From the IMG/VR virus record IMGVR_UViG_3300025012_000035, positions 1 to 64,000 of that record: 64,000 nt of DNA; one strand, written 5' to 3'. This document shows positions 12,615 through 51,459 of this stretch, one piece after another (within the stretch, counting starts at the first letter, position 1; every line of letters begins with the position of its first letter). The notes under the pieces are model-generated. The model did no database searches. It saw only the letters and a list, made by a program, of their open reading frames with translations, and had not been told where the DNA came from. The stretch comes from a virus. Position numbers and translations under genes: made by a program.

Positions 12615-14060
12615 ATGGGAGATAAAAGTAAGAAGGATAAGAATGGTAAGATTAAAATTGAAGGTAAAGTAAATAAGAAAGATATAGTTAAGAAGGATGA
12701 TAAATCTAAAAAAGTAGAAAAAGTAGATATTAAAGAAAATTGGAATAAGTATAAATCTGATTTAAAGGAAAGTTTTAAAAGTTATTTATGGGACTTGAAA
12801 TTAGGTTATAATCCACTTAAACCACCTAAACATGAAGATTTAAAAACTTCAATTAAGAAAATAATTAGAACACGTAAGTCAAGAAGTATAGAGGCAGAAA
12901 TAGAGAATGTATTTATACAAACTAACTGTCATAATAACAGAGGCGAATATCCTTATCATATAGCAACAAATAAAAAAAGTGATATTCATTATCAAGTAAT
13001 GTTTAAATTACCTTATGGATTAAATTTTAAATATATTATTGATAGAAAAAACTATTTTGCAGATTCTATAATAGCACATGTTAATATAGAAAAAAGAAGA
13101 GGATTATTAATGGTTGAAGTTATTAAAGGTGTTGTGCCTGAATTGTATAGATATAATTTTAATTATGCTGAATATATGGATAAATGTATACCGATTCCTA
13201 TAGGTGTTAGTGTTGCTGGTATACCTATAATTGTTGATTTAGCAAAAGTACCACATATGATTATTGGTGGAATAACAAGGTCTGGAAAAAGTATTTTATT
13301 AACTGGAATTTGTGATGCCATAATGCAAAATAACAATGTTAAATTGCTTGTCACAGATTTAGCAATGACTGATTTTGTACACTTAAAAGACCATATTGTA
13401 TTTGGATATAATTTAGATACCGCAGAAATTATATTAGAGTGCTTGATGCAAGAAGTTGAAAGAAGAAGATATTTTCTTGTTCAAAATAATTGTGTAAATC
13501 TTATTAAATATAATGAAAAAAATCCTAATAATAAAATGGATTATATTGTATTGGTTATTGATGAATTTGCTTTTACTTCACCTAGAAAGAGTGATGATAA
13601 GGTAACAAAAAGTAGAAGACAGAGATTGCAAAGTATATGTGCAGATTTAGGTATGATAAGTGCTAAGACTGGTGTACATTTAATTATAGCAATGCAAAGA
13701 CCTTCTGATAAATTAATTCCTATGGAAGTAAAGTCAAATTTTCCATGTGCAATTAGTTTCAAAACTGCAAATTATGGTACTAGTATGACTATATTAGGAA
13801 ATACAGATGCTTATTATTTGCCGAATATTAAAGGTAGAATGATATTTCAATATGGTTCTAATCAAATGGAATTGCAAGCAATGTTATTAGAGCAAGAAGA
13901 AGCAATTAGAAGGTTAGCAATGTTTGATAAGAAATTAGATAGATGTGATAATGTAAATAAAGCAAGTTATTTTTATAATAAAGGTGATGATTTAAATGTT
14001 GACCCATTTATTCAATTTCAAATCAATGACAACGAGACAAAAAGGTTATTACCGAGATAA
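12615..14060 (+). CDS. FtsK/SpoIIIE-type DNA translocase (TcpA-like coupling protein)
   Basis: 481 aa. A Lys-rich N-terminus is followed by an FtsK ATPase domain: Walker A GGITRSGKS at residues 218-226, Walker B IVLVIDEF at 311-318, and a sensor region with IAMQRPSD. It lacks FtsK's four membrane helices and the gamma domain, so it resembles the short TcpA-like coupling ATPases of Gram-positive conjugative elements that pump DNA to the transfer channel. Membrane proteins encoded just upstream could supply the anchor. A relaxase with classical motifs is not visible. It overlaps the next gene by 65 bases. Confidence 0.85.
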   Translation: MGDKSKKDKNGKIKIEGKVNKKDIVKKDDKSKKVEKVDIKENWNKYKSDLKESFKSYLWDLKLGYNPLKPPKHEDLKTSIKKIIRTRKSRSIEAEIENVFIQTNCHNNRGEYPYHIATNKKSDIHYQVMFKLPYGLNFKYIIDRKNYFADSIIAHVNIEKRRGLLMVEVIKGVVPELYRYNFNYAEYMDKCIPIPIGVSVAGIPIIVDLAKVPHMIIGGITRSGKSILLTGICDAIMQNNNVKLLVTDLAMTDFVHLKDHIVFGYNLDTAEIILECLMQEVERRRYFLVQNNCVNLIKYNEKNPNNKMDYIVLVIDEFAFTSPRKSDDKVTKSRRQRLQSICADLGMISAKTGVHLIIAMQRPSDKLIPMEVKSNFPCAISFKTANYGTSMTILGNTDAYYLPNIKGRMIFQYGSNQMELQAMLLEQEEAIRRLAMFDKKLDRCDNVNKASYFYNKGDDLNVDPFIQFQINDNETKRLLPR

Positions 14061-14736
14061 ATGTATAGTTGATATAATAGATGAGTTTGGAGTATTAACA
14101 ACAGAGCAATTATATCTGTTGTTTTTTTCTTCAATAAAATATGGGGTAGTTAAGTGTAGAGAAAGATTAAGGATATTGAAAGGGAAGGGGAAAATTGATT
14201 CTGTTAGGGTAGATATTAATGAGTGTAATATTCACTTTACAAATAAAAAGTATAAGAATAATAGGTTTATTTCACATGATATAAACAGAAATTGGGGATT
14301 TATTTATTTGTTGAGATATATGAATAATAATTATAAGTATTATAAGTTTAATGATATTGAGATAGAGTATGTTATGGAGTGTGGTAAAAGACCAGATGGG
14401 ATTATAGGATTTATTAATTATGTAACAAATGAATATAAGTATTATATTATTGAAAGTGATAAATTTGAAAGTAATAATAAGTTTATGAAGATTATTAATT
14501 ACAATGAGATATTTAAAAATAAATTATATTTAAATGAATATTGGGCAAATAGGGTGAAGAGATTCCCTAATATATTGATTGTGTGTAATAGTGAAAATAA
14601 GAAATTGAAAGTTTTAAAGAGTGTAGAGATAGATAATATTAAGTATGATTATATTGATAATGGTGTTGAGAAAAAAGAAGGGATTAAGTTTATAGTTAAA
14701 ACTGTGGATGAGATTAAATTATATTTAGGATTGTGA
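13996..14736 (+). CDS. Replication-relaxation-like protein
   Basis: 246 aa. The N-terminal winged-helix part (DIIDEFGVLTTEQLYLLFF, then RERLRILKGKGKID) and the later KRPDGIIGF / YYIIESDKFE segment fit the replication-relaxation family, often found beside FtsK-like translocases on Gram-positive plasmids. The ATG at 13996 lies inside the FtsK gene with AAGGTGAT upstream; a second ATG at 14026 has no SD. It probably acts at the transfer or replication origin, but the biochemical function of the family is unsettled. Confidence 0.65.
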   Translation: MLTHLFNFKSMTTRQKGYYRDKCIVDIIDEFGVLTTEQLYLLFFSSIKYGVVKCRERLRILKGKGKIDSVRVDINECNIHFTNKKYKNNRFISHDINRNWGFIYLLRYMNNNYKYYKFNDIEIEYVMECGKRPDGIIGFINYVTNEYKYYIIESDKFESNNKFMKIINYNEIFKNKLYLNEYWANRVKRFPNILIVCNSENKKLKVLKSVEIDNIKYDYIDNGVEKKEGIKFIVKTVDEIKLYLGL

Positions 14737-15323
14737 TATTTAATGATTATTTTTTTTGTAAATTTATTGGTTGTACATTATAATTTGTTGTATAGATAAA
14801 TTATGAGATAGTACAATATGTATGACAATATGATAGGAGATATGAGTTAGGATATATATAAGGATATGTATTGTAGAAGATATAAATTAGTTTGTCCAAT
14901 ACTATTAATTACTTATCAGGTGATTCGGGAGTAAGAAGTTAGAAGTATGAAAACTTCTGTGGTGTATATTTTTTAGGTTTGATTTGTGATGATGCTTGTG
15001 ATATGTGATATGGTAGGTTATAGAATTGTTTAATATACCCCATTATATGGTTAGTTAACTAATTAGTTGATTTATTGCGTGAATAGTTAATTAGATAAAT
15101 GATTAATTAGATAAATATATAATTAGACAGAAAAATAGTTAATTAGATAATAAATTATATTATTAAGTTATTAAAATATTAATTAGATAGTTGATTGATA
15201 TAATAAAAAATATTTTTTATTTTGTGCATAGATTAAAATTTAATGGGATAAGATAAATACAAGATAGGGTAAAGGATTGAATAAAGCAATATAAATAAAA
15301 TGGTAATAGAAAGGATAAATTAA
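14737..15323. other. G/T-rich non-coding region
   Basis: 587 bases without a gene, rich in G and T on the plus strand. It contains a short hairpin AGAAGT-ATGAAA-ACTTCT at 14951-14968 and the AATTAGATA array at 15061-15189. It lies between the transfer-like genes and small membrane genes, so it is a candidate oriT or origin; no relaxase nick site was recognised. Confidence 0.45.
15061..15189 (+). repeat. AATTAGATA iteron-like array
   Basis: AATTAGATA or a one-base variant starts at 15089, 15105, 15121 (AATTAGACA), 15141 and 15181, spaced 16, 16, 20 and 40 bases. A partial copy is at 15061. The tract is almost pure A+T. Confidence 0.6.
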
Positions 15324-15641
15324 ATGGAGAATATGGAGAATGTAGAAATTAATAAAACAATTGATGTAAATGTAAAGAATATAATGTATATATCATCAAT
15401 AATATGTTTATCATTACTTTCTGTAAGTGGATTAATGATAGGAGACATTGGAGGTAAAAGTGGGATTGGGATATTAGGATTAAGTGATTTATTTAGGTAT
15501 ATTAGTTTTATTTGTTATGGATTAGGTGTGTTTTGTGGTAGTTTATTATGGTATTTTGGGTATGTGTATAGGGATCATGGGAATGGGAATAATGGAAATA
15601 GAGATTCAACCTCATCCTTCATAAGAATACATTGTAAATAG
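15324..15641 (+). CDS. Small membrane protein
   Basis: 105 aa. Hydrophobic helices lie at about residues 20-42 and 60-84, followed by a polar Gly/Asn tail. The SD is AAAGGAT. A terminator follows at 15662. No family recognised. Confidence 0.65.
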   Translation: MENMENVEINKTIDVNVKNIMYISSIICLSLLSVSGLMIGDIGGKSGIGILGLSDLFRYISFICYGLGVFCGSLLWYFGYVYRDHGNGNNGNRDSTSSFIRIHCK

Positions 15642-15661
15642 ATGAATGATTTAATTAGTTT

Positions 15662-15691
15662 GATCTCCTTTAATGGGAGATTATTTTTTTT
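15662..15691 (+). terminator. Rho-independent terminator
   Basis: ATCTCC (15663-15668) pairs with GGAGAT (15676-15681) and is followed by a T-rich run. Confidence 0.75.
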
Positions 15692-15775
15692 GATAGTGTA
15701 AGTATAAAGTTTAATTTTATGGATAGATTAATATCAACAAATTATAAATATAAAAAGTATAAAGGAGTGTTATTA

Positions 15776-15994
15776 ATGAAATGTTTAAAGTGTGGGAATA
15801 CTGATTTAAGTATATTGGTTAGAATGACTGTTAATTTTCCTGTAGATTTAAATGGGAATATTTATATTAATGATTATGAAGGATATAATGATTTATTAGA
15901 AGAAGCAATAAATGATGTGGGAAAAGAGGATAAATATTATAGATGTTGGAAATGTGGATTAGAGTGGAGAGTAGATGGGAAGGTTAATAAATAA
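15776..15994 (+). CDS. Zinc-ribbon mini-protein
   Basis: 72 aa from the ATG at 15776, where AAAGGAG lies ten bases upstream; an in-frame ATG at 15719 has no SD. It carries CLKCGNTD at the N-terminus and CWKCGLEW near the end, one zinc ribbon separated by a beta-rich, acidic insert. Confidence 0.75.
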   Translation: MKCLKCGNTDLSILVRMTVNFPVDLNGNIYINDYEGYNDLLEEAINDVGKEDKYYRCWKCGLEWRVDGKVNK

Positions 15995-16024
15995 TGAATG
16001 AATGAATATAAATGGGAGGTAATT

Positions 16025-16276
16025 ATGATTATTAATGTACAGAATATGGATGGATATTATTTAGTTATGGAATTTATTGAAGGTAGTGTGGTTAATTTAG
16101 TTATTAGTGATTGTATTGAGAAAGTATTTGTATTTAGAAAGAATGTTGATGTTATTATTGATTTGGGTGAGATGAATAGAGAGGAAGTTAAAGTTTATGA
16201 GAAATATAGAAAGATGGTTGGATATGGTGATAAGTTTGTTAGTGTTTTGAAGTATAGGAGTGAGTATGTTGTGTAA
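16025..16276 (+). CDS. Hypothetical protein
   Basis: 83 aa from the ATG at 16025, which has GGGAGGT five bases upstream. It is a beta-rich Val/Ile protein (NMDGYYLVMEFIEGSVVNLV) with a helical, Lys/Tyr-rich end. No motif recognised. Confidence 0.65.
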   Translation: MIINVQNMDGYYLVMEFIEGSVVNLVISDCIEKVFVFRKNVDVIIDLGEMNREEVKVYEKYRKMVGYGDKFVSVLKYRSEYVV

Positions 16277-16324
16277 GATTGGAATAATATTAAATACTTT
16301 TTTAAAATAAAATAAAAATTAATA

Positions 16325-16353
16325 TTGACAGATTATAAATATAATAGTATAAT
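16325..16353 (+). promoter_or_regulatory. Consensus promoter
   Basis: TTGACA (16325-16330), 17 bases, TATAAT (16348-16353). It decides the start of the next gene: the TTG here is part of the -35 and not a start codon. Confidence 0.75.
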
Positions 16354-16369
16354 ACAGTTAGGCAGAAGT

Positions 16370-18169
16370 ATGTCTAAAATTAAATTAAAAGGAGAAGATT
16401 ATTTGCAAAGTGAAGTAATTATTAATGATGTAAGAATCCCAATTATAAAAGAAAGTGAGGTGATATATTATCCAATTAGTTATATGGGTAGTAAAGTATT
16501 ATTAAAAGATTTAACAGGTAATCAATTAATTAGAAATGGATATGGTGAGTACATAAGACAATTTGAAATTAATTATGGAGAAGATACAGGTGGAATACAA
16601 AATACATATTGTATATCTGAGTTAGGGTTAAAGGTTATATTGAAGAATAGTAAAATTGGTAGATTGAAGATTGAACAGAAAAGGAATATGAAAGTTTTAT
16701 GTGAATATCTTAATTTAGATATTGATATTGATTATAATGCTAAATTTAAAGATAGTATTACTAAAGAAGAATTAGAGCAACATGATTTTTGGTCAAAATT
16801 ATGTATAAATATATTTATAGAAAATAATGATAATATAATATGGCAAAAATGCAATCAATGTGGGAGATATTATCCTTATCATGAAGAATTCTGGATTAAA
16901 GAAACAAATAAAAATAATAAACAACCATTAAGAGCAGTATGCAATAAATGTAAAAACGTATATATTCATTATTTTAATAATAAAGAATATACTAAAGCAT
17001 ACTATGAGGGAGGAGAAATATTATATAATATATATAAAAGTGGGAATAAAGATATTTATGAAATTTATAAATATTATATAGAAGGTAAATATGAATATCC
17101 ATCAATATTAAAAAATAGTTTAAATACTACAAATATAATTGTAAGATTATATAAAGATATAATCTTAGAAAATATTGATAAATGTACACCTGAATATTTA
17201 AGTAGTTTAACAAAAATACCAATTAAGTACATAAGTATAAAAACATTGGATAGAAATTTATTTCAAAAAATTAAAAAAGAAGAATTATTAAAAACTAACA
17301 TAGAGAATGAAATGCCAAAAGAAAGAAAACAAAGAATATATAGTAAAAAAATAATTAAAAGAATGACATTTGAAGATGCTAAATATTTAGTTGATACATA
17401 TGTACAAAATAATAATATAATAATTGATATAAGTAATGTTTATATATATGACTATGATGAATTATTTAAATCTTCAAAAGTATATTGGTATGTGACAAAA
17501 GTATATAAAGATAAACTTGGATTTGTTATGAGGTATTTTAATAATCAATATGCATCTTATAAATTTAAAAGTGTTATTGGTCAAAGATATTGGAAAGATA
17601 GGGATAATGTAGATTTGACTATGAGGTATTTTATTGAACAAGATATAAAAATACCAATAGAAAAGATACCTTTATATGTAACTAAAATGAATTTACAAAT
17701 GAAAGCAAGTATATTATATAATATATTACGTGAAAAAAGATTTGATAGTAGTTTATTTGAATGGATTAATAGATTATATCCAGATAAATTCATAGAGGAA
17801 GATTTTGCTGTAGGAATAATTAGAAATGAATTTGATTCCATGGAAGAAAAAATGGTTCATGATATGTTGAAACAAGAATTTAAGAATGTTGTTTATAATA
17901 ATAGAAATAGTGAAAATAAAGTTAATATTATGGGAATGATGCCTGATTGGTTTATATTTACTGATTTAAATATTTATATAGTAGAGTATTTTGGTATAGA
18001 AAAAGATCAAAAAAGTAAAAATAAGAGAATTGCATATTATTTAGATAAAACTGAAAGGAAATTAAAGAAGTATAGTGTATTACCATATGCTGAGAAAATA
18101 TATTTATATCCAAGTGATATAAAAGGTGATTGTGAAGGATTTAAAGAAAAAATTAAAGTTATTGTGTGA
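16370..18169 (+). CDS. Phage regulator-like protein fused to zinc fingers and a nuclease-like C-terminus
   Basis: 599 aa from the ATG at 16370, about ten bases after the predicted transcript start. A TTG at 16403 has a better SD (AAAAGGAG, spacer 8) and is an alternative. The N-terminal 100 residues (YYPISYMGSKVLLKDLTGNQ, GGIQNTYCISELGLKVIL) resemble Bro-N/AntA-type phage regulators. A zinc module follows (CNQCGRYYPYHEEFW then CNKCKN). The C-terminus has EKMVHDMLKQEF, PDWFIF and YIVEYFG, the E, D and E-x-x spacing of PD-(D/E)XK or EDxHD-type endonucleases. It could be a homing nuclease or a DNA-targeting regulator; the domains are inferred by eye. Confidence 0.6.
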   Translation: MSKIKLKGEDYLQSEVIINDVRIPIIKESEVIYYPISYMGSKVLLKDLTGNQLIRNGYGEYIRQFEINYGEDTGGIQNTYCISELGLKVILKNSKIGRLKIEQKRNMKVLCEYLNLDIDIDYNAKFKDSITKEELEQHDFWSKLCINIFIENNDNIIWQKCNQCGRYYPYHEEFWIKETNKNNKQPLRAVCNKCKNVYIHYFNNKEYTKAYYEGGEILYNIYKSGNKDIYEIYKYYIEGKYEYPSILKNSLNTTNIIVRLYKDIILENIDKCTPEYLSSLTKIPIKYISIKTLDRNLFQKIKKEELLKTNIENEMPKERKQRIYSKKIIKRMTFEDAKYLVDTYVQNNNIIIDISNVYIYDYDELFKSSKVYWYVTKVYKDKLGFVMRYFNNQYASYKFKSVIGQRYWKDRDNVDLTMRYFIEQDIKIPIEKIPLYVTKMNLQMKASILYNILREKRFDSSLFEWINRLYPDKFIEEDFAVGIIRNEFDSMEEKMVHDMLKQEFKNVVYNNRNSENKVNIMGMMPDWFIFTDLNIYIVEYFGIEKDQKSKNKRIAYYLDKTERKLKKYSVLPYAEKIYLYPSDIKGDCEGFKEKIKVIV

Positions 18170-19048
18170 TGATTATTGTTTAGTTAGTTGATTAGATGGA
18201 TTTGATAGATATGTAGGTAGGGTAATTTAAAATTTATTGTAATAGTAGTTGATATATGTTATCGTATATTGATTACTATTTTTTATTTTTAGATATAAAT
18301 TATTGTGTATATTTGTATCTAATATATGTGTTTATGGGTTATAATATGGAGATATTATAGAGATATTATTAGTTGATATGTAGATGTAATATTAAATATA
18401 GTGGATATAGTTGATTTGAAATAGTTTAATAAATATAATAGTTTTGACGAATGATAATTGAAATGAATTATTTGATTTAATTTGTTTGCCGATAGCATTC
18501 GCAGTCGTTGACTATCTGTATGTAGTAGTAGAATAGATGTTGTGTATATGATAATGATAATCACTCTCATTTTTGTAAACTACACCCCACCATGCTCATC
18601 TCTTCTGAATCTCTCCACATAATAAACCTTATGCGAAGTTATTATGGTAAATAGTGGTAGTATAGGAAATTGTTAGGTTATTTGTTGGGTAGGTGTAAGG
18701 TGTTGACCTGTTGGTTAGCTGGTACATAAAAATACATACTAAAAATAAACTTTGATTTTGATTGAAATAAAGCCTAAATAAGAAGAGATAATTTTGAATA
18801 GGTATAATATGACCTGAGAAATGAAATAAAGGTGAAATATGTAGTTATTTTGATTATATCTGATAAAATATGAATGCTTTATATCCTGGTTAATTAATTG
18901 ATCAATTGATCACAGGATTAATAAAATTGGTTCACTTGTGAAATGTGAGGTGGAACATTATCACCGGGAATAAATTATTACCAGGTACTAAGTCGGAATA
19001 TATAACAAGAAATTTTTTGTTGAACTATTAAATAAGAATAAATCCTAA

Positions 19049-19104
19049 ATAAGAATCATTCCTATCTAGTAAATTTTCCTAATAAATAATGATTCTTATC
19101 CACA
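19049..19104. other. Inverted repeat with DnaA box at the strand-composition switch
   Basis: ATAAGAATCATT (19049-19060) and AATGATTCTTAT (19088-19099) are perfect complements. The consensus DnaA box TTATCCACA occupies 19096-19104, overlapping the right arm. It is a candidate origin element. Confidence 0.55.
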
Positions 19105-20049
19105 TAATTGTATCAAATATCAAACAATTAACTCATAACTATATCCATATAATACAATAATAAATACCACAACACATAATATTATTATCTACTACACATA
19201 GTAATCAAAACTACATCATGTAATAATAAATACCATATCACATATTATACTATATCTATATTATCTATCTAATACGCCTATAGCCTATCTACTATATAAC
19301 TAATACATAGACCAACACAAGTCATTAAACACCACTAATATATATACAACTATATAACTATACAACACTTCAAACAAAGCTATACTACTAATACACTATT
19401 ACCATTATACAATCTAATATACACTCACTATATATTACATCATACTACCATATTATATATACATTGCTACCATACTATGCTACTATTTATATCAGTATCA
19501 TGTTATCACATTATTACTATCTCGTTACCACTGGTAATATATCATACTACCAACTATATCATACCTATATCATATTTTATATTACAGTCTATGCTACCAG
19601 ATACACAATACATAAGCTAACACCTATATACTAGCCTTATTACTATATACCATAGTTTACTACTACCAAACTGCTACCATATCAAACGGTATCACCTAAA
19701 TATCACTCCAACCCAATCCTAACATCAACTCCAACATCACAAAGTATCACCTAAATACTACCAAATCCAAATCCCTTTATTCTCAATTCTCTATACACCT
19801 ACACGCCAAAATAATTATACCCAACTTAAAACTTCTCATATCACCTTTAAACCATATTGTAGAATACACCAAATTTAAGCCTAAAATAAAATAACGTATA
19901 TTAGCACCTAAGCACTATAAATATAATTTTACCTACACAAAAACCCTCCAATCAATCATATTAACTATTCCAAAATTTCATATATAAATAACCTAAAATC
20001 CATCTAAAATAACCTCAATCACACAACACTCCAACCAATCCAACCACAT

Positions 20050-20198
20050 CATTTTGTTACACTATAGTATCATTTTGCTACACTATTGTCACATTCTGAT
20101 CATCCTACTATACCTCTACTATACATACACTGTTCCATTTCAACATACACTGTTCCAATATAGAACATATAACCGTTCCATTACGATACACATTTCCA
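20050..20198 (+). repeat. Two phased iteron arrays
   Basis: Array 1: CATTTTGTTACACTAT, CATTTTGCTACACTAT and a degenerate CATTCTG start at 20050, 20071 and 20092, exactly 21 bases apart. Array 2: ATACACTGTTCCA at 20126 and 20146, a partial ...CGTTCCA ending at 20180, and ATACACATTTCCA at 20186, a period near 20. Two helical turns per repeat is typical of Rep or ParB binding sites. Confidence 0.7.
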
Positions 20199-20363
20199 AA
20201 CTACCACATCAACCTTTAAACTAATCAATATACCCTCCAATATATCCAACCAAACAACGCAAAAAACCTACTAAAATCAACACTTTCAGCCCTCTGTATA
20301 ATCTATACCCTCTTAGGGTATACTACAAATTATAAATATAATTTTGGCATGATTCTTGCAATA

Positions 20364-20397
20364 TATAATAGTGTAAGTCTTCTTTGAAAACTACACA
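20364..20397 (+). promoter_or_regulatory. Promoter -10 and boxA-like element of the structured RNA
   Basis: TATAAT at 20364-20369 has only a weak -35 (TTTTGG, 16 bases upstream). CTTTGAAAACTACACA at 20382-20397 resembles the boxA antitermination element of Bacillota rRNA leaders; 13 of these bases recur at 29754-29766. Confidence 0.45.
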
Positions 20398-20399
20398 TA

Positions 20400-20565
20400 G
20401 GCAGGGAGTACGGCGAATAAGTGACCGAGCGACGATACTGCAAAAGCTGCATGAGGGTAGCCAGTGGAAGGACTGAAAAGTCTGGGCTATGGGTGGATTA
20501 CCACACAGGGAGAACATGCGGAACATGCAAGGAGCAGGTGGACGGTGCCAGAACTGCATAAATCC
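20400..20565 (+). ncRNA. Probable structured RNA, family unknown
   Basis: A G+C-rich, purine-rich island in very A+T-rich DNA, without a convincing ORF. Local stems are visible: GACT-GAAA-AGTC nested inside GTAGCC...GGCTAT (20457-20490), GTGG-ATTA-CCAC (20492-20503), two CATGC copies (20515 and 20524) that can pair with GCATG at 20449, and GCAG...CTGC (20534-20557). It is followed by a long leader hairpin. It is not RNase P, SRP, tmRNA, 6S or a riboswitch class I can recall. Confidence 0.5.
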
Positions 20566-20635
20566 TTTTTAAAGCCTTCAACTATCTTTTATTTACTATG
20601 TTTTGCTTTAACTTTGAAGGTTTTACAAAGGGTTT
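20560..20635 (+). repeat. Long leader hairpin before 20657
   Basis: AAATCCTTT (20560-20568) pairs with AAAGGGTTT (20627-20635), and GCCTTCAA (20574-20581) with TTTGAAGG (20613-20620). The 3' arm runs into the AAAGGAGG site of the next gene, so it could control its translation. Related hairpins occur at 23301 and 23594. Confidence 0.6.
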
Positions 20636-20656
20636 ATAATAAAAGGAGGTTATAAC

Positions 20657-20941
20657 ATGAAATCAAAATTTGAATACATAATAGACCGTGACGACAATAA
20701 GAAAATAACTGGCAGGTCAGTACAAATAACTATAACAGCCAGTACCTTAGAAGATGCAGAAAAGGCTTTATCACATTTTGAAATTTATTTAAAACTGAAT
20801 ACAAATAACAATTATCATTTTTCTGGTTGTCCTTGGGAGTGTAAAGCAAAAAACAATAATTGGCAATATGGCGATACTATAGTAGTTGATGACAAGGAAG
20901 AAGCAGAAGAAATTAAAAAGTATTACAAAAAGTGGAAATAA
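20657..20941 (+). CDS. Hypothetical protein
   Basis: 94 aa, AAAGGAGG upstream. The first half is beta-rich (SVQITITASTLEDAEKAL), the middle has CPWEC, and it ends in a basic helix KKYYKKWK. It is the first gene of the rightward mini-gene array and lies behind the structured RNA and its hairpin. No family recognised. Confidence 0.7.
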   Translation: MKSKFEYIIDRDDNKKITGRSVQITITASTLEDAEKALSHFEIYLKLNTNNNYHFSGCPWECKAKNNNWQYGDTIVVDDKEEAEEIKKYYKKWK

Positions 20942-20946
20942 TAACA

Positions 20947-20988
20947 ATACTCCTACACTGTTGATAAAATCGCTTGGTGTAGGAGTAT
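20947..20988 (+). terminator. Hairpin after 20657 gene
   Basis: ATACTCCTACAC (20947-20958) pairs perfectly with GTGTAGGAGTAT (20977-20988). It has almost the same arms as the hairpin at 21715-21757 and lacks a T-run, so it may be an mRNA-stabilising or regulatory element and not a standard terminator. Confidence 0.5.
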
Positions 20989-21023
20989 AACAAACCAATA
21001 CATAACAAAGGAGGTACATACAA

Positions 21024-21704
21024 ATGATGCATCATGAATTTTGTACTATAACAGCTTTACAAATACCATACGAGCAATACGCCAACGAGATTGAACCATT
21101 ATATATGCAGTCACCTTTACAGAAGCAAGAATTTTGCAGTAAATGGTTAAAGAAGTATAACAGAACCAACAAACCAATAGCAGCAGCCTGCATCCTAAAG
21201 GACGTTAAAAAGGACATTATAACTTCTATCAAAAATGAGATTGATAACAGAAAATACTATAACATTGAACGCAAAAAGCTAGTTGCAGAACAATACAAAA
21301 TTTTCAAATCCCATTATGATTTCTATGAAGATTCAAATGGAAATTGGTGGGAATATATACACGATAACATGAGGCAAGTATTTACCAGAGAAAGATTTAA
21401 TCTAATTGAAAGACATAGTTGTGAATGCCATTATCACATTATTTATAAAGACTGCTCAGAAAGAAATTTCCATTCTGACGATATTATAACAGGACATGAA
21501 AATGCAAAAAACATAAGCTATAACAATATTGTTTATATGTCTATATCCACAGGAGATTATGAAATGGATACAGAGACAGGCGAATTAAACTTTGATGTAT
21601 CTGAAGATGACCAACTTGAGGCAAGAGATAATTATTTTGCAGGTATTGAAATAAAGTATAAAACCAAATGGGGATTAAAACAACTAGCAAAATTAAACCA
21701 ATAA
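21024..21704 (+). CDS. Hypothetical protein
   Basis: 226 aa, AAAGGAGGT upstream. The N-terminal half is helical and Lys-rich; the middle has paired Cys/His residues (HSCECHYHIIYKDCSE); the C-terminal third is acidic. No recognised family. It sits between two copies of the ACTCCTACAC hairpin. Confidence 0.7.
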   Translation: MMHHEFCTITALQIPYEQYANEIEPLYMQSPLQKQEFCSKWLKKYNRTNKPIAAACILKDVKKDIITSIKNEIDNRKYYNIERKKLVAEQYKIFKSHYDFYEDSNGNWWEYIHDNMRQVFTRERFNLIERHSCECHYHIIYKDCSERNFHSDDIITGHENAKNISYNNIVYMSISTGDYEMDTETGELNFDVSEDDQLEARDNYFAGIEIKYKTKWGLKQLAKLNQ

Positions 21705-21714
21705 CACTATAACA

Positions 21715-21757
21715 ACTCCTACACTGCCACCTAACCAGGTAAATATAGTGTAGGAGT
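21715..21757 (+). terminator. Hairpin after 21024 gene
   Basis: ACTCCTACACT (21715-21725) pairs with AGTGTAGGAGT (21747-21757); same arm sequence as at 20947, different loop. Confidence 0.5.
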
Positions 21758-21839
21758 ATAACAACTTAACAGCTTGCACCATACCGATTAATCAAATTAA
21801 CTTATACTAAACTAAAACTAAAAAGGAGATATGAGAAAA

Positions 21840-22034
21840 ATGACACATGAAAATTTCTATGCAGGTAATACTGAATATGTAATAATTTACAAAAATGGTA
21901 CTCACCACATAAAGGAAGTATCCTACAACGACAACGACGACACAATATTAACAACAATTTTCACCGGGAATTATGAAAAATGTCTAGCCGAGAAGGAGCA
22001 CATTATAACAGAGCATGCCGAATCATTGTTTTAA
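21840..22034 (+). CDS. Hypothetical small protein
   Basis: 64 aa from the ATG at 21840, eleven bases after AAGGAG; an ATG at 21831 is too close to that site. It is a polar alpha/beta protein. No motif. A short ATGCAGG/CCTGCAT hairpin follows at 22059-22094. Confidence 0.6.
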   Translation: MTHENFYAGNTEYVIIYKNGTHHIKEVSYNDNDDTILTTIFTGNYEKCLAEKEHIITEHAESLF

Positions 22035-22141
22035 TATATATTTTAGAATCTTTTTTGAATGCAGGAGTGACAAATTAACACGGTCAACCTGCATTTTATA
22101 AAGGATTAAAAATAAATGTAAATAAAAGGAGAATGATAACA

Positions 22142-22519
22142 ATGACTAATATTAACCTAAATAACATTATCCGTGAGGCTAAAATGTGGAATACTCAAAT
22201 TAAAACTTTGGAATCTACCCTAACAACCTTAACCGATACGCATATGATTAATAGTTATAAAAAAGCCATTGCCGATACTGCCGAAATATTAACACCGCTA
22301 AAAGCTAAACTTGATTATTACCAAATTTTTTATACCGACACAATCAGCCCGGAAATAAACAACGTAATAGCACACGAATTAGACTTACATCTCCCAGGCG
22401 ACATTGACAGTTATTTAGAAAATTTATATCCAGGTACGGATCATATTATTGTTGGATGCAGAACCGGAAAAACTATAGAGGAACTAACCAGCACACCACA
22501 TTTTAATTATTCCGTTTAA
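22142..22519 (+). CDS. Hypothetical protein with N-terminal coiled coil
   Basis: 125 aa from the ATG at 22142 (AAAAGGAG, spacer 10); an ATG at 22133 is only one base from the SD. Residues 1-65 are helical with Thr-rich heptads (TLESTLTTLTDTHM). The C-terminal part is mixed and contains GCRTGKT, too isolated to be called a nucleotide site. Confidence 0.65.
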   Translation: MTNINLNNIIREAKMWNTQIKTLESTLTTLTDTHMINSYKKAIADTAEILTPLKAKLDYYQIFYTDTISPEINNVIAHELDLHLPGDIDSYLENLYPGTDHIIVGCRTGKTIEELTSTPHFNYSV

Positions 22520-22550
22520 TCCGTTTAACTCAATAAATTATTTTAAATCT

Positions 22551-22604
22551 AAAAATGTTAGTATTGATGTTATTTTCTAAAATTGATTCAATGCTAACAT
22601 TTTT
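22551..22604 (+). terminator. Terminator hairpin
   Basis: AAAAATGTTAG (22551-22561) pairs with CTAACATTTTT (22594-22604); further pairing inside (ATTGA/TCAAT). Confidence 0.6.
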
Positions 22605-22630
22605 AAAATTCTAAATAGGAGTACCAACCG

Positions 22631-22948
22631 ATGCAACTTTTAAAATTTTCCCTAGAATTAAAAAAAGGTATTTTAACCGAAAAAACCTTAAACTTAGAAA
22701 TTTACAAAGAATCTCCTAAATTTTACTATATTAAAAATGATTATCCTAGCAAAATACACAAAGAAGAAGACATTAATATTTTATCTTTTTGGGAACAGAA
22801 CAGAAGTATAGACACCTTAACAGCTTGGATTTATTTAGATTCAGAAGAATCAATTCCTAAATTTAGGGAGTTAATTCTTAACAGATTTAAAGAAATTTTG
22901 CTAGAGGATAAGTTAAAAATAGAACTAAATTTAACCTGTTTTAAATAA
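22631..22948 (+). CDS. Hypothetical protein
   Basis: 105 aa with a moderate SD (AGGAGTACC). Beta-rich N-terminus, helical C-terminus, high Lys/Glu. No recognised motif. It is followed 21 bases later by the zinc-binding gene, probably on one transcript. Confidence 0.65.
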   Translation: MQLLKFSLELKKGILTEKTLNLEIYKESPKFYYIKNDYPSKIHKEEDINILSFWEQNRSIDTLTAWIYLDSEESIPKFRELILNRFKEILLEDKLKIELNLTCFK

Positions 22949-22969
22949 ATTAAGAAGGAGGTACAAAAA

Positions 22970-23194
22970 ATGAATAAATGTAGTCTATGCGGAAAAGAAC
23001 ACGACACTAACAACTTTATGTATTGCCCGGATTGTATAAAATCTATATTACAAAAATCCGGTATTGATGAATCAGAAATTTTGACAGAAGAAGAGCAGGA
23101 GGAACAAAAAGAGCAACAACAAGAAGTAGAAAATTATTGTTTGTTTTGCCGTGGCGGTGGTTGTGTACAGTGTGAGCCTAAAAATTATCTATAA
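22970..23194 (+). CDS. Zinc-binding mini-protein with two Cys clusters
   Basis: 74 aa, GAAGGAGGT upstream. CSLCGKEH and CPDCI form one zinc ribbon at residues 4-23. A Glu/Gln-rich helix follows (residues 38-52), then CLFCRGGGCVQC, a DnaJ-like Cys spacing. It could be an adaptor or a nucleic-acid-binding protein. Confidence 0.7.
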   Translation: MNKCSLCGKEHDTNNFMYCPDCIKSILQKSGIDESEILTEEEQEEQKEQQQEVENYCLFCRGGGCVQCEPKNYL

Positions 23195-23706
23195 CAATAT
23201 AACATATAATTTATTTTCCGTTAGCCTACTAGAAATGGTAGGTTATGGGAAGGTAAATATAGTATAACAGGAGGTAACACCAATGTAGAGGCTAAAAAAC
23301 CTCTTATAAAGTCCTTCTACACTCTTCCTCCAACACATAACAAAAGAAGGATTTTATAAGGAGTGCCTAACCGTAACATGGGATGTATTGAAACAGTATA
23401 ACAAAGATATCTTTAATTTGCATATTGCCAAAAATCCATATAACAGCTCACCACCAACCACCATGCAATATGTAATCTAAAGGTATTTTAATATTTACCT
23501 TAATATAACATATACATAATATAACAATATCAACCAAATATAAGGAGGTTAACACAATGGAACAAATAAGCTGGTTGATGCAGGGATGAAAACAAATCCT
23601 TTGTAAAATACCTTATAACAGTAAGCAACAAGCATTATACATATAACAAAATAAGGTATTTTACAAAGGATTTATAACAGACAACTAAATTAAGGAGTTG
23701 ATATTA
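23195..23706 (+). promoter_or_regulatory. Double leader region with micro-ORFs and long hairpins
   Basis: Two similar units lie in these 512 bases. Unit 1: GGAGGT, then ATG-TAG (23283-23288), then a near-perfect stem 23301-23318 with 23345-23363. Unit 2: AAGGAGG, a 10-codon ORF MEQISWLMQG (23557-23589), then a perfect 23-bp stem 23594-23616 with 23651-23673, then the SD of the 23707 gene. The order micro-ORF, hairpin, SD suggests translational attenuation. Between them is a 7-codon ORF (MGCIETV) and two small hairpins. Confidence 0.5.
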
Positions 23707-24789
23707 ATGACTGACAATAGCATTCCCTATCTTTGCCAATGGAATTCTACTACCAACAATGATCAACCAATTTGTAAAATCAATTCAGAACACGTTAACA
23801 TACTCTTAGACTTATCCACTATGCCAGAAAAAATTAAAAACAAATATATTCCAAATATGTATTCAATGTTTTATCCAGAGGAACAAACCTGTTTAAATCC
23901 TACATACCTAGATAAATTATCCATTGAATTTAATTCCTTGATTCCTGTTAATTACAAGGAATATAATGACAATGGAGATATTGAAAGAACTATCTTTGTA
24001 GGATTTTTACAATTACCGCATAATGTCATAGATTCAGAAGGGAAATTAATCCCATATTCTAATAGAGATGATTTATTGAAGATAACAGAATTTACAGAAG
24101 ATAACAATTATAATTTCCGTTGTCATTTTACTAAAAATAGTTATTATTTTTCAGATATTGTAATAAATACATATAATTTCTTTAATAATAAAATTCGCTC
24201 ATATGATCAATATTATGCATTTATTGGTAATATGAATAGATTGAATGACAAATTAGCTGATAACACACAAGAATATTATGCAGAAATTAACCGTAATACA
24301 GCAATCAATTCACCACGACTCAACATGGATAATTATAACTTTTCTCATGGTTTAACCGCTTTTAATAATGGTTCACCTGAGAGAAATCTTAATAATATCT
24401 TAAATAGTATAACAGATAGTAATAATAATTATATGGAAATTTGTTGTTCAACTCCTAATAAGCCAATAGGCTTAATGGGAATATTTGTAAAAGGTAAAGT
24501 AGTCATGGCAAGTTGTACCGATTTATATACAGAAATTGGATCTGAGTATAAACGCATATTCGATAACATAGACTATTTTACACCAGCTTTTTCTTATAGT
24601 CAATTATGGAAAAAACACTCAGGAAGGGGAGGTGACAACTGCAACAACGAAATAATCCTAATTCCTGGTGAAATAACAGGAATATGGGTTAAGGAATATG
24701 CCGGAATTGAGACTAAAGAGGATGCTCAGGAAATAGCAAAACAATTAAATGTCAGCTTGTCTATTGTAAGTGCTTGGAGACAAGAATAA
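23707..24789 (+). CDS. Hypothetical protein, 360 aa
   Basis: Started at the ATG at 23707 with AAGGAG nine bases upstream; the in-frame TTG at 23698 lies inside the SD. The sequence is mixed alpha/beta, with HGLTAFNNGSPERNL at about residue 220 and EIILIPGEITGIWVKE near the C-terminus. The final 30 residues form a helical hairpin (KEDAQEIAKQLNVSLSIVSA). No family recognised with confidence; the beta-strand NEIILIPG is reminiscent of, but insufficient for, an ADP-ribosyltransferase-like fold. It is controlled by the long leader hairpin. Confidence 0.65.
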   Translation: MTDNSIPYLCQWNSTTNNDQPICKINSEHVNILLDLSTMPEKIKNKYIPNMYSMFYPEEQTCLNPTYLDKLSIEFNSLIPVNYKEYNDNGDIERTIFVGFLQLPHNVIDSEGKLIPYSNRDDLLKITEFTEDNNYNFRCHFTKNSYYFSDIVINTYNFFNNKIRSYDQYYAFIGNMNRLNDKLADNTQEYYAEINRNTAINSPRLNMDNYNFSHGLTAFNNGSPERNLNNILNSITDSNNNYMEICCSTPNKPIGLMGIFVKGKVVMASCTDLYTEIGSEYKRIFDNIDYFTPAFSYSQLWKKHSGRGGDNCNNEIILIPGEITGIWVKEYAGIETKEDAQEIAKQLNVSLSIVSAWRQE

Positions 24790-24799
24790 TATAATTTAA

Positions 24800-24834
24800 G
24801 TCTACCTTAACCGGGTAGGCTTTTTTATTTTGTC
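24800..24834 (+). terminator. Rho-independent terminator
   Basis: GTCTACC pairs with GGTAGGC (one G-U), followed by T6. Confidence 0.75.
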
Positions 24835-25190
24835 CATTTTTAAATCCATAATTTCCCTAATACCCCAAATCCTCTATAACAGACCAACAAAAACCACCTT
24901 CCATATAGTTCCATAACAGCACATCATAATCCAACCTACCATAAATTCCCACAAATAACTCTTTACATTCAATTCTCAATATGTTATAATGAAATTTACC
25001 GACGCTATTATATATACAATCTATACAATATCCATCAATTAATCATCAATTCATCAACAAATTAAAAAGAAAGGAGGACAGAAGAAAATAGATATAATAA
25101 TATTGCTAAATGTCAATAGTTTTTTATAGAATTGTATAAATAATATGTAGAAAAAGAAAAATAATAATCAATTAGATTAAAGCCAAACGA
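24835..25190. other. C/A-rich non-coding stretch
   Basis: About 355 bases. The first 150 are C/A-rich on the plus strand with two TATAACAG/CATAACAG words. ATGTTATAATG at 24980 is a possible -10 region for the Rep-like gene. No gene seen. Confidence 0.4.
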
Positions 25191-25207
25191 AAAAGGAGGA
25201 ACTATTT

Positions 25208-26398
25208 ATTAATACCACAACAAATGATCTACATGAGATAGTAAAAAGAGTATTATATATTAATCTAATAATCAAAAATTATAAAGGAATGTGTATTTTA
25301 CTAAAGCAAGAAGAAAAGCAAGGAGGAAGAAATAAAAAGCTTCAATTTGAAATATGGAAACAATATTTTAACTGGATTAAACAAGGCCACAAATACATAA
25401 TAACTGAAATATACGATAACCCAATAATCAAAATAGATAATCAAGGAAATAATATCTATAATACATATATAGAAAAGCTAGTCCTTGATCTACTAGTCCA
25501 AAAATACGAATCAGAAGATGAATATAATAAAAGAATATATCTAAGTAAAGATAATATGTTACAATCTCTTAACATGGTTAATACTAACTATCACTATATA
25601 AAATACAATATAGCTGATTCAGCGAACTATATAAAAGTAAAATCAGAAAACATAAAGGAATTCTATGATATAAATAATAAGAATTTTAATAACTCAGTTG
25701 AAAGAGCCTTAAAACGTCTAGCGAATAAATTTCTTGTCAATTGGCAATTTACTCAAACGGTAGCAGTAAAAGAGTCTGATATAAAAGATGTATATGATTA
25801 TGATGATGAATCAATAAAAGAAATACATAGAGATGCTACCAAAATAGAAAGAGAATATATAATAAAATATGAATTATTGATGGCTGAAGAAATGGGATTT
25901 AAAACTAAGCAAGATATATTTTTATGCGGTAAATATTTAGAATTTATAGATAGAGTATGCAATAAACTACGAGAAGAAGAATTTGATATTTTATATTACT
26001 ATACAAGTTATGATATAGTATTTCACGAAAAAGTAATAGAAGAATTAAATAATATTAATCAGTATCTATTAGATTATGAAGAAAGGAAAGATGTTAAGGT
26101 TACTCTAAATGGTATCATATCTAGTAACATAGTAAAGAATACTGAAAAGCGACATATTGAAGCTATAGAGGAATTGCCACCAGTATTAGGTCAAAGAAGA
26201 ATTGATAAATATGATTATAAACAAGCAACATTATTAAGACGTTCTAATGATAATTATATTACTGATAATGATAAAATAATTGATACTGTTATAAACCATA
26301 AAACAAGAAAATTAATTGATAATATTATATCCTACAATAGAAAAGAAAAAGATAGAATAAATAAAGATATAGATAATTTATTATATGGCGATGAATAG
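25208..26398 (+). CDS. Replication-initiator-like protein, probable ATT start
   Basis: 396 aa if started at ATT (25208-25210), eight bases after GGAGG in AAAAAGGAGGA. The first in-frame ATG (25289) has a weak AAAGGA and lies inside the conserved-looking block YKGMCILL. The N-terminal pattern (Y-x3-C-x-LL, GGRNKKLQFE, GHKYIITEIYD) resembles winged-helix proteins of Bacillota plasmids and phages annotated as replication proteins. The C-terminal half is helical and strongly charged. It lies 5 kb right of the iteron arrays, fitting a Rep protein. The family resemblance is recalled, not searched. Confidence 0.55.
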   Translation: MNTTTNDLHEIVKRVLYINLIIKNYKGMCILLKQEEKQGGRNKKLQFEIWKQYFNWIKQGHKYIITEIYDNPIIKIDNQGNNIYNTYIEKLVLDLLVQKYESEDEYNKRIYLSKDNMLQSLNMVNTNYHYIKYNIADSANYIKVKSENIKEFYDINNKNFNNSVERALKRLANKFLVNWQFTQTVAVKESDIKDVYDYDDESIKEIHRDATKIEREYIIKYELLMAEEMGFKTKQDIFLCGKYLEFIDRVCNKLREEEFDILYYYTSYDIVFHEKVIEELNNINQYLLDYEERKDVKVTLNGIISSNIVKNTEKRHIEAIEELPPVLGQRRIDKYDYKQATLLRRSNDNYITDNDKIIDTVINHKTRKLIDNIISYNRKEKDRINKDIDNLLYGDE

Positions 26399-26408
26399 AA
26401 TATAAAAA

Positions 26409-26475
26409 TAAAATTGGGTACTAGAACAGGCAATAGAGTATATATCATTATCCTGTTTGTGTACCCAATTTTTTA
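26409..26475 (+). terminator. Long terminator hairpin
   Basis: AAATTGGGTAC and inner AACAGG pair with CCTGTT and GTACCCAATTT, followed by T-rich sequence. Confidence 0.75.
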
Positions 26476-27540
26476 TTATTTAATTTTATATCATGATATA
26501 TTTATGATACCGTCTATATTATACCTTATAATTATCCTTTTTTTATATCTTAATTTTTACTTGCTACTATTTTATGGTTTATAAGTGACAACTTTTATTT
26601 TACTATTGCTATTTAGGTGTATGGTATCAAATTTTACTTTTTGCTACTTAATATTAATATCACTGCTACCATTAAAAATTATATCGCCTCACTAACCTAT
26701 AGTCTAATCGACAATCGTTGACTGGTATTATTTTTACCCGTTTAAACGGGTAAAAAGTTAATCCAGCCAATTAATAATTTATATTATTTCTATCTCCCAT
26801 TGTTACTTACTATGTTACCGCTTATGCTACCACAAAATTTATTATCATGTTATTAATCATGTTACCATCCAAAACTAAAAATTTAACATCATCTTGGTAT
26901 CATCCAAATATCATCAATCAATCTATTCTTTAATTTCTCTTTCTCTAATCATCAATTTTCCTTCTTCCTTCCTCTATTCCCTCAAGGTACAAATACACAC
27001 TGAATATTTTATACAGCCATTCCTGGGCATTCTGACAAGCCATAAAAAACTCTTATATAATCATAGGTACAAGGATCATCAATGTAATATATTAACAATA
27101 TTCAGTATAAATATACATATACACTCTATTATACATGTATAAATGTATAATTCACCTCATATTTACCCTACATTAACCCTAAAATTATTATATTTATAGT
27201 CTGTCTCAGTGTTTATTTAACATCATGTTACCATTATACTTCTTATTTTAGCATCATATCTATATGGATATTACCGGAAATGTTTATAAATTATAGTTAT
27301 GAAATTATGTAGGGAATTGATTGGTTAATAATAGGTAATAAATGTATATTGTAATATTTCGATATATGAATAATTAAATATTATAATATCGAGATAATAA
27401 TATATAGTAAACGATTGTTAATTTTTATGTATTTATCTTCTGGTTAATATCTACCATAAATTAACAATAAATAATTTATGAAAAGTAAAAATAATAATGT
27501 ACATTTATTATCTATTAGTATATAATAGTAGTTGAAATAT
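26476..27540. other. 1.07-kb non-coding region
   Basis: T/C-rich on the plus strand; the 82-codon frame at 26894-27142 is purine-poor and without an SD, so it is rejected. It holds a perfect 26-bp palindrome (26731-26756) and several GTTACC/GCTACC words at 26640-26880 and 27230. ATTTCGATATAT and ATATCGAGAT (27355-27395) form an imperfect inverted repeat. It could be a second cis-acting locus for the Rep-like protein. Confidence 0.4.
26731..26756. repeat. Perfect 26-bp palindrome
   Basis: The left half is TTTTTACCCGTTT and the right half its exact complement. With T5 on both sides it could be a bidirectional terminator, but no gene ends nearby. Confidence 0.75.
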
Positions 27541-27565
27541 ATTATTTTTTAAGGAGGTTTTACAA

Positions 27566-27883
27566 ATGGCAAAAACAACCAAAAAGAATTATTTTACACT
27601 TGTGCAACTTCAACAAAAATTCTCTGGTACGATTGACAGGGACATAAATATTAAATCAGGGAAAACTAAAAAAGATACATATATAGTCAGTAACCTCTGG
27701 GAACTTGCAGAAAAGTTAAACCTAGTGACAGAAACAGATATAAATATAATGAAAGGATACACTCAATATACTTGTGGGTGTTGGTGTTGGGATAAAAACC
27801 CTGTCAAATGTCCTATATGTAGAAAGATACTCAGAGATCGCACAGAAGCAGAAATAGAAGAGGATAAACTTTGGGAATGTTAA
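27566..27883 (+). CDS. Cys-rich small protein
   Basis: 105 aa, AAGGAGGT upstream. The N-terminus is basic (MAKTTKKNYFTLVQLQQKFS). The C-terminal 35 residues hold CGCWCWDKNPVKCPICRK, a likely zinc knuckle. A terminator follows directly. Confidence 0.7.
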   Translation: MAKTTKKNYFTLVQLQQKFSGTIDRDINIKSGKTKKDTYIVSNLWELAEKLNLVTETDINIMKGYTQYTCGCWCWDKNPVKCPICRKILRDRTEAEIEEDKLWEC

Positions 27884-27915
27884 ACACCTTCTAACAGGTG
27901 TTTTTTCTTTTTCTC
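27883..27915 (+). terminator. Rho-independent terminator
   Basis: ACACCT pairs with AGGTGT, followed by T6CT5. Confidence 0.75.
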
Positions 27916-27965
27916 AAATGCCCAAAAAATCAAGAAAAATAAATATAAAAATATTAAAAAACCTA

Positions 27966-27993
27966 TTGCAATTAATCCGAAAATGTTTATAAT
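27966..27993 (+). promoter_or_regulatory. Cassette promoter for 28039
   Basis: TTGCAA, 16 bases, TATAAT; then AGAAAGTAAATACATA and AAGGAGG. Archetype of the array promoters. Confidence 0.75.
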
Positions 27994-28038
27994 TATATAT
28001 AGAAAGTAAATACATAAATTTTATAAGGAGGTTTTACA

Positions 28039-51360: not shown

Positions 51361-51412
51361 AGTAACTCGTTCTGGTGAGTATAAATAGAACTTTAGGCCA
51401 GAATGAGTTACT
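51361..51412 (+). repeat. 15-bp hairpin between 51115 and 51460
   Basis: AGTAACTCGTTCTGG and CCAGAATGAGTTACT pair with one mismatch. It precedes two SD-like sequences. Confidence 0.65.
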
Positions 51413-51459
51413 GTCTATAATGGCAGGAGGTAGTTAAAATTAGAAGGAGGAATACATAA

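What the first reader, a model, noticed from the sequence alone, without database searches (positions are those of the whole stretch)
18170..20300. Abrupt strand-composition switch at an inverted repeat carrying a DnaA box
Non-coding DNA left of about 19060 is G/T-rich on the plus strand; right of 19080 it is C/A-rich with very few G for 1.2 kb. C/A-rich intergenic stretches continue to about 37.4 kb although the genes there run rightward. The switch point carries a perfect 12-bp inverted repeat (19049-19099) and TTATCCACA (19096-19104). The polarity (G-rich to C-rich) is terminus-like for bidirectional replication, but could mark a unidirectional origin or a transfer-strand boundary.
Basis: partly seen in the sequence, partly recalled or inferred. 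Interest (0 to 1): 0.7.

Follow-up and report, generated by a model that had tools for sequence, protein, structure and literature searches.

The report
Phage dif-like site at skew switch
A large bacterial virus carries what looks like a bacterial chromosome's end-of-replication marker (a dif-type recombination site) where the make-up of its two DNA strands flips, and its relatives keep the same arrangement, which suggests that the virus handles its own DNA like a small chromosome.

Summary
The switch is real. In 18170-20340 the G fraction among G+C falls from 0.70 to 0.14 at about 19040. It is not a gene-direction effect: third codon positions of rightward genes fall from about +0.7 to -0.15 GC skew, the largest same-strand step in the 142.8-kb record. 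Seven distinct loci, the window included, share it. It is local (about 10 kb each side), not replicon-wide.

The switch spans a conserved, compositionally neutral block of about 500 bp. In all seven loci this block holds a 28-bp, 11-6-11 dif-type Xer site (window 18612-18639). A weight matrix built mainly from published dif sites ranks it 1st of 285,322 positions in the record. The window encodes a Xer-like recombinase with its catalytic residues and an FtsK/SpoIIIE ATPase; each is found at 6 of the 7 loci.

Best reading: a phage-borne dif/Xer terminus-like locus inside a zone of opposed polarity, as dif is in chromosomes. The 12-bp inverted repeat and TTATCCACA exist but are not the conserved heart. 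Fork convergence and recombination are inferred, not shown. Known KOPS/SRS motifs are not enriched, and no host copy of the site was found in 391 sampled genomes. Convergent transcription remains the main rival.

The parts
18612..18639 (-). 28-bp dif-type Xer site, 11-6-11; on the - strand ACTTCGCATAA GGTTTA TTATGTGGAGA
   Evidence: Rank 1 of 285,322 positions in the record with an arms-only matrix of 26 dif sites; counterpart in 7 of 7 loci
18536..19060 (.). conserved, compositionally neutral central block between the two skewed flanks
   Evidence: 7-locus alignment; change points on either side of it
18551..18590 (+). conserved left block GATAATGATAATCACTCTC...TTTGTAAAC...CCCC
18800..18816 (.). 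conserved AGGTATAATATGACCTG element (window, L045, L074)
18943..18958 (.). degenerate counterpart of the 16-bp palindrome TGTTCCACGTGGAACA (parS-like) that is exact at the block in four other loci; no copy within 2 mismatches in this record
   Evidence: L065 sequence
18993..19028 (+). core motif TCG-N6-(G/T)ATAACA-N6-9-TTTTGTT-AACTAT; a match in 7 of 7 loci, single in each of six records scanned
19096..19104 (+). TTATCCACA (DnaA-box-like); also in the L065, L074, L078 loci
14061..18545 (+). left flank, C-depleted on the + strand (third positions about +0.6 to +1.0)
19100..28000 (-). right flank, C-depleted on the - strand; 19100-20340 noncoding, then rightward genes with third positions mostly about -0.2 to -0.4 up to 25 kb and near zero after that
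8878..9726 (-). Xer-like tyrosine recombinase, 282 aa; R137 K161 H227 R230 H254 Y263 invariant in 6 sequences
12615..14060 (+). FtsK/SpoIIIE-type ATPase, 481 aa
   Evidence: Pfam PF01580 8.8e-15
13996..14736 (+). 246-aa protein, weak Replic_Relax match below cut-off; gene overlaps the ATPase gene
1527..2684 (-). ParB-like protein (not found in 11 related records)

Best explanation
The locus is a phage-borne, terminus-like control region built round a dif-type Xer recombination site. In bacterial chromosomes dif lies where strand polarity flips from G-rich to C-rich, inside a polarised zone of about 10 kb per side, where FtsK brings dif sites together and Xer recombinases resolve dimers. Here a large tailed phage has a 28-bp dif-type site at the same kind of junction, on the same scale. 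I propose that the phage spends part of its life as a circular replicon; that DNA synthesis reaches this locus from both sides and ends there, so that the strand pointing at the locus is repeatedly single-stranded and loses C to T; and that the dif-type site resolves multimers or concatemers, using the phage Xer-like enzyme or host XerC/XerD and the phage FtsK-type ATPase. SHOWN: the switch, its independence from gene direction, its conservation in 7 loci, its local extent, the dif-type site, the intact recombinase residues, the ATPase gene. INFERRED: circular state, fork convergence, deamination as the cause, recombination at the site, ATPase involvement.
For: The largest same-strand step in third-position GC skew lies at the site in all 5 contigs long enough to compare widely (0.73-0.90, against at most 0.57 elsewhere and then mostly of opposite sign); G014 (0.49) has 5 comparison points and G001 (0.65) none. 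Inward strand C-depleted in 14 of 14 noncoding flanks, 2.3-10.7% C against 17.2-25.1% G. Same-strand gene skew +0.76 at -4 to -2 kb, -0.16 at +2 to +4 kb, +0.3 to +0.4 beyond 40 kb. dif-type 28-mer in 7 of 7 loci; matrix rank 1 in 4 of 7 sets, with runners-up at other places of 14.1, 10.2, 9.7 and 10.4 against 16.4, 23.4, 25.6 and 25.6 bits. On the - strand its XerC arm ACTTCGCATAA equals arms of published dif sites, and L045/L075 carry the published XerD arm TTATGTAAACT. Change points lie within about 460 bp of the dif-type site in 7 of 7. Xer-like gene at 6 of 7 loci, FtsK-type gene at 6 of 7. dif activation zone of about 10 kb each side (PMC5357621, passage). Control phage pCD1602_4, of similar base composition: largest same-strand step 0.32.
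Against: Three of 7 loci carry a symmetric variant of the site that ranks only 9th, 13th and 15th by the matrix. G013 has the site but no Xer-like homologue in 70.9 kb, and G001 lacks the ATPase in its 15.2 kb read. SRS and KOPS-like motifs are not enriched (GAGAAGGG 0 and 0; GGGNAGGG 2 inward, 0 outward; GAAGAAG 14 and 13), and no other polar k-mer stands out beyond composition. No FtsK gamma domain was reported in the ATPase. A parS-like palindrome and DnaA-like boxes beside it look origin-like. Far-field skew shows no opposed replichores. The record is a fragment, so the origin is unknown. Recent turnover of right-hand genes could blur or shape the right-hand decay. A published simulation of chromosomes favours fork-trap over dif-stop termination (PMC3317982, passages), so a dif site need not itself be the stop.
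Confidence: 0.5

Rival explanations
1. Convergent transcription. Rightward early genes on the left and a long leftward antisense transcript on the right both stop at the control block; displaced non-template strands deaminate, giving the opposed skews without any role for replication.
For: Genes almost everywhere show a sense-strand skew of about +0.2 to +0.5, also in pCD1602_4; left genes run rightward; within single contigs the right-hand effect ends at different distances, about 4-12 kb.
Against: Right-hand genes also run rightward, so antisense would have to dominate over several kb in seven lineages; promoter-like sites in 17.5-22.5 kb are at chance level (37 found, 38.4 expected) and no terminator-like site was found; does not explain the dif-type site.
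Confidence: 0.2
2. attP for integration at a host dif site, as in Xer-exploiting mobile elements; the skew is a by-product.
For: dif-type site plus tyrosine recombinase in a phage; Xer-exploiting elements are known (PMC5357621, passages).
Against: No copy of two site variants within 3 mismatches in any of 391 sampled genomes of the class of Clostridium thermobutyricum (host unknown, no positive control run); integration alone would not make two opposed flanks.
Confidence: 0.15
3. Replication origin and partition region: DnaA boxes, a parS-like palindrome and AT-rich DNA start replication here.
For: TTATCCACA at 4 of 7 loci, with a second, inverted TTATACACA at two of them; exact TGTTCCACGTGGAACA at the block in 4 of 7 loci and a one-base variant in L075; genes diverge about 9 kb to the left.
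Against: The polarity is the reverse of that of outward forks on both sides; no initiator was recognised among the ORFs scanned; the palindrome is degenerate in this record.
Confidence: 0.1
4. A fixed DNA end (packaging cut or hairpin telomere): 5'-to-3' resection exposes the strand whose 3' end points at the site.
For: The sign of both flanks and a decay over several kb fit resection from a break; palindromes of variable sequence lie near the switch.
Against: All eight related records with the block run through it unbroken (loci L045, L065, L074, L075, L077-L080); no ResT/TelK protelomerase in the record; TerL lies about 36 kb from the site in G011.
Confidence: 0.08

Closest known systems
Chromosomal dif / XerCD / FtsK system
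   Same: 28-bp 11-6-11 site at a G-rich to C-rich switch, polarised zone of about 10 kb per side, Xer-type recombinase, FtsK-type ATPase
   Different: On a phage; opposed polarity is only local; no recognised KOPS/SRS motif or FtsK gamma domain; one Xer-like gene; a variant symmetric site in some relatives
Single-recombinase Xer systems (XerS/difSL, XerH/difH, archaeal XerA/dif)
   Same: One recombinase gene near a dif-type site; best NCBIfam match XerA_Arch 1.2e-43, below its cut-off
   Different: 11-6-11 site of classical dif type; recombinase gene 9 kb away; no homologue found in one of 7 relatives
Xer-exploiting mobile elements (IMEX; CTX-type phages)
   Same: dif-like site in a phage
   Different: Large dsDNA tailed phages with their own recombinase; no matching host dif in 391 sampled genomes
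SPbeta group
   Same: MrpR-like repressor fold, NAD-dependent ligase, large low-GC genome
   Different: No nucleotide match of the first 24 kb in the phage collection; SPbeta origin or terminus not examined here

Membership tests
dif/Xer terminus system | 28-bp site, 11-bp arms round a 6-bp centre | tested here: met
   7 of 7 loci by layout; matrix rank 1 in 4 of 7, 9th-15th in 3
dif/Xer terminus system | Single best site per replicon | tested here: inconclusive
   Best in the 142.8-kb record, but the record is incomplete; not best in G006, G011, G012
dif/Xer terminus system | Lies at a G-to-C skew switch | tested here: met
dif/Xer terminus system | Catalytically complete Xer-type recombinase | tested here: met
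   Catalytic residues invariant in 6 sequences (their identity as catalytic is recalled); gene at 6 of 7 loci; below NCBIfam XerC/XerD cut-offs
dif/Xer terminus system | FtsK motor with gamma domain | tested here: inconclusive
   Motor domain found; no gamma domain reported; gene at 6 of 7 loci
dif/Xer terminus system | Polar guiding motifs (KOPS/SRS) pointing at the site | tested here: not met
   a lineage-specific motif cannot be excluded
dif/Xer terminus system | Opposite the origin; forks meet there; recombination occurs | not testable with these tools
   Needs a complete replicon, read depth and assays
Replication origin (oriC/oriV type) | C-rich to G-rich switch | tested here: not met
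   Opposite polarity
Replication origin (oriC/oriV type) | Cluster of initiator boxes and an initiator gene | tested here: inconclusive
   One or two TTATNCACA; no initiator recognised among the ORFs scanned
parS centromere | 16-bp palindrome of the parS type | tested here: not met
   No copy within 2 mismatches of TGTTCCACGTGGAACA in this record; exact copies in relatives
Hairpin-telomere phage (N15 type) | Protelomerase | tested here: not met
   PF16684 absent in the record, control genome rang; record incomplete
IMEX / dif-integrating element | Site shared with host dif | tested here: not met
   0 of 391 genomes, two variants, up to 3 mismatches; host unknown
oriT / conjugative transfer | Relaxase | tested here: inconclusive
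   Replic_Relax 17.2 bits against cut-off 25.3; structure model unusable

The most novel reading that the evidence does not exclude
A lineage of large tailed phages carries a miniature chromosome terminus: its own dif-type site, its own Xer-like recombinase and FtsK-type motor, and a self-made activation zone of opposed strand polarity about 10 kb wide on each side, created by recurrent inward DNA synthesis ending at the site. The 246-aa protein whose gene overlaps the motor gene could act as a separate DNA-reading module in place of the missing gamma domain.
Probability: 0.3. Interest if true: 0.8.

Novelty: new variant of a known kind. Interest (0 to 1): 0.6.

Why it matters
Chromosomes need dif, FtsK and opposed polarity to separate daughters; whether polarity arises from fork convergence or from selection for guiding motifs is hard to separate there because the scales coincide. 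Here opposed polarity is confined to about 10 kb round a dif-type site, free of gene direction and of known guiding motifs, in seven related phage loci. If replication causes it, termination alone would be shown to leave such a footprint; if not, antisense transcription or resection would be shown to mimic a terminus, a warning for skew-based origin and terminus calls in phages.

Tried and rejected
Hairpin telomere: no PF16684 match. KOPS/SRS or another polar motif as cause: not enriched. Primase-site enrichment: TAG on the inward strand is only weakly enriched, z 2.5-2.8. Rfam: nothing credible at the switch. Phage and plasmid nucleotide searches: no match. Exact pattern ATTCCTATCTAGTAAAT: 2 records, one of them a chance match, L046. 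The core motif as a dif arm: set aside once the 28-mer was found about 400 bp away. A conserved hairpin beside the core: z below -2 in 4 of 7, absent in the window. Pattern control: 27 viral contigs hold TGTTCCACGTGGAACA-N35-64-ATAACA; the six of this lineage show the switch; of the other 21, 19 could be judged on both sides and none shows it, and two (L113, L125) had too little DNA on the right. Structure of the 246-aa protein: mean pLDDT 40, unusable. Substitution spectrum between the window and L074: mirror-like but confounded by composition, not used. Genome-collection scan with UvrD: 4 distant hits (30-35% identity), no synteny followed. Viral scans with the ATPase and with the 614-aa protein: no relative found. 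Counts use a home-made ORF chooser, not a standard gene finder. L078, L079 and L080 (three contigs, near-identical at the site) are counted as one locus.

Full report
What was given. The window is bases 1-64,000 of a 142,796-base IMG/VR virus record with no end repeats, probably a fragment. I fetched the rest in four stretches.

Observation. In the noncoding stretch 18170-20340 a single G/C change point fits at 19036-19044 (2-unit interval 19022-19061), with G making up 0.70 of G+C on the left and 0.14 on the right; lnLR 102 against a maximum of 8.7 in 500 shuffles. Over 14-25 kb the best point moves to 18562, because about 500 bp between the two points are compositionally neutral.

Not gene direction. 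Rightward genes have third-position GC skew of +0.5 to +1.0 from 11.1 to 18.2 kb and mostly -0.2 to -0.4 from 21 to 25 kb, then rise slowly. In 6-kb windows the same-strand step at the site is 0.90, against a largest value of 0.57, of opposite sign, at 252 other places in the record. A control phage with similar base composition, Clostridioides phage pCD1602_4, shows no step above 0.32 in 250 places and keeps about +0.2 to +0.5 in gene orientation in most bins.

Relatives. Protein searches found L045 with synteny on both sides, then L065 through UvrD and the recombinase, then L074, L075, L077 and L078-L080 through the 246-aa protein. With the window these are seven distinct loci (L078, L079 and L080 are near-identical at the site and counted once). 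All seven show the switch. Steps at the site are 0.49-0.90 in the seven contigs; among the five with many comparison places the site is the extreme of the contig. Pooled, rightward genes run +0.32, +0.41, +0.51, +0.76, +0.68 from -10 kb to the site in 2-kb bins, then -0.05, -0.16, -0.14, +0.01, -0.03, +0.17 from the site to +12 kb, and +0.33 to +0.43 beyond 40 kb, the last from one contig only. Leftward genes further left have +0.2 to +0.5 in their own orientation, so the anomaly does not reach them. The strand that runs towards the block has 2.3-10.7% C and 17.2-25.1% G in 14 of 14 noncoding flanks.

Anatomy. The neutral block is conserved in order: a GATAATGATAATCACTCTC...TTTGTAAAC...CCCC block; a 28-mer; a palindrome TGTTCCACGTGGAACA, exact at four loci, one base off in L075, variant in L045 and degenerate in the window; a variable hairpin, significant in 4 of 7; a core motif matched at 7 of 7 loci and single in each of six records scanned; TTATCCACA at 4 of 7 loci.

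The dif-type site. The 28-mer has 11-bp arms round 6 bp: window 18612-18639, L045 9066, L065 8876, L074 13086, L075 12976, L077 14634, L078 12312. Two forms occur. L045 and L075 read AGTTCCGATAA-TAAATC-TTATGTAAACT; its right arm equals the XerD arm of the Myxococcus site printed in PMC2731167 (passages) and of B. subtilis dif (recalled). The window's left arm ACTTCGCATAA equals arms printed there for Thiobacillus and Methylobacillus. An arms-only matrix from 25 printed sites plus B. subtilis dif ranks the site first of 285,322 positions in the window's record, first in G013, L075 and L045, and 13th, 15th and 9th in G011, G012 and G006, which carry a more symmetric form. Change points lie within about 460 bp of the 28-mer in 7 of 7.

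Machinery. The window's 282-aa recombinase (8878-9726) matches XerA/XerC/XerD models at 1e-41 to 1e-43, below their cut-offs, and keeps the six catalytic residues of the family (their roles recalled) in six sequences. A 481-aa FtsK/SpoIIIE ATPase lies at 12615-14060. Of the seven loci the recombinase is at six (not G013) and the ATPase at six (not G001). A ParB-like protein in the window was not found in 11 related records. Related records G011 and G015 carry TerL and portal (G011) and a 2609-aa ORF of tape-measure size (G015), so this is a tailed-phage lineage.

Mechanism. The inward strand loses C. That is what repeated single-stranded exposure of the strand pointing at the block would do, whether by inward forks, inward transcription or resection from a break. 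Outward forks give the opposite sign, so an origin does not explain it. Published work places dif near terminus skew shift points, though its simulation favours fork traps over dif as the actual stop (PMC3317982, passages), and describes polarised regions of about 10 kb on each side of dif (PMC5357621, passages). The phage locus matches the position and the scale. Guiding motifs of known type are absent, so a mutational cause seems likelier than selection for KOPS. I give 0.5 to the terminus-like dif reading, 0.2 to convergent transcription, 0.15 to an integration site, 0.1 to an origin, 0.08 to a DNA end; these overlap in part.

Literature. Searches for phage GC skew and termini, SPbeta and its origin, phage-plasmid with parS or terminus, dif and skew shift, replication-relaxation with FtsK, terminal repeats with resection, dif-like sites in phages, and phage-plasmid with dif listed no paper that from its title or abstract start describes a dif-type site with a local opposed-skew zone in a tailed phage. 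The library is open-access only. Of the papers cited I saw passages only (PMC3025954, PMC3317982, PMC10516654, PMC5357621, PMC2731167).

Limits. Record fragments, no read depth, no transcripts, unknown host, home-made gene choice.

Noticed in passing
window 20372-20575: GC-rich noncoding block, 96.6% identical in relative L074 14336-14539, downstream of a sigma-54-like promoter (GG-N10-GC near 20345-20361; also in L045, 2 of 7 loci). No Rfam match; fold no better than shuffles (z +0.5). Candidate noncoding RNA.
   Followed up: partly
window 4190-6119 (-): UvrD-type helicase split into two overlapping ORFs, also in L045; one 589-aa ORF matching the same helicase family (phrog_1967) in G011 (L083 9511-11280). 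Possible frameshift or a split gene.
   Followed up: partly
window 51365-51435 (+): Pistol ribozyme above Rfam's gathering score.
   Followed up: no
G011, G012, G013 about 9.7, 12.0 and 14.6 kb right of the site: A second exact TGTTCCACGTGGAACA in each; could be a ParB or repressor site that bounds the right-hand zone in some contigs.
   Followed up: no
window 18551-18564: GATAATGATAATCA resembles the Fur-box consensus (recalled) and is conserved in several loci.
   Followed up: no
L004 12330-13322; L003-L004; L006: MrpR-like SPbeta-type repressor; SpoIIID, AgrB, DndB-like proteins; an RNA-repair cluster of RNA ligase, RlaP-type nucleotidyltransferase and tRNA nucleotidyltransferase, with an NAD-dependent DNA ligase nearby.
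   Followed up: no
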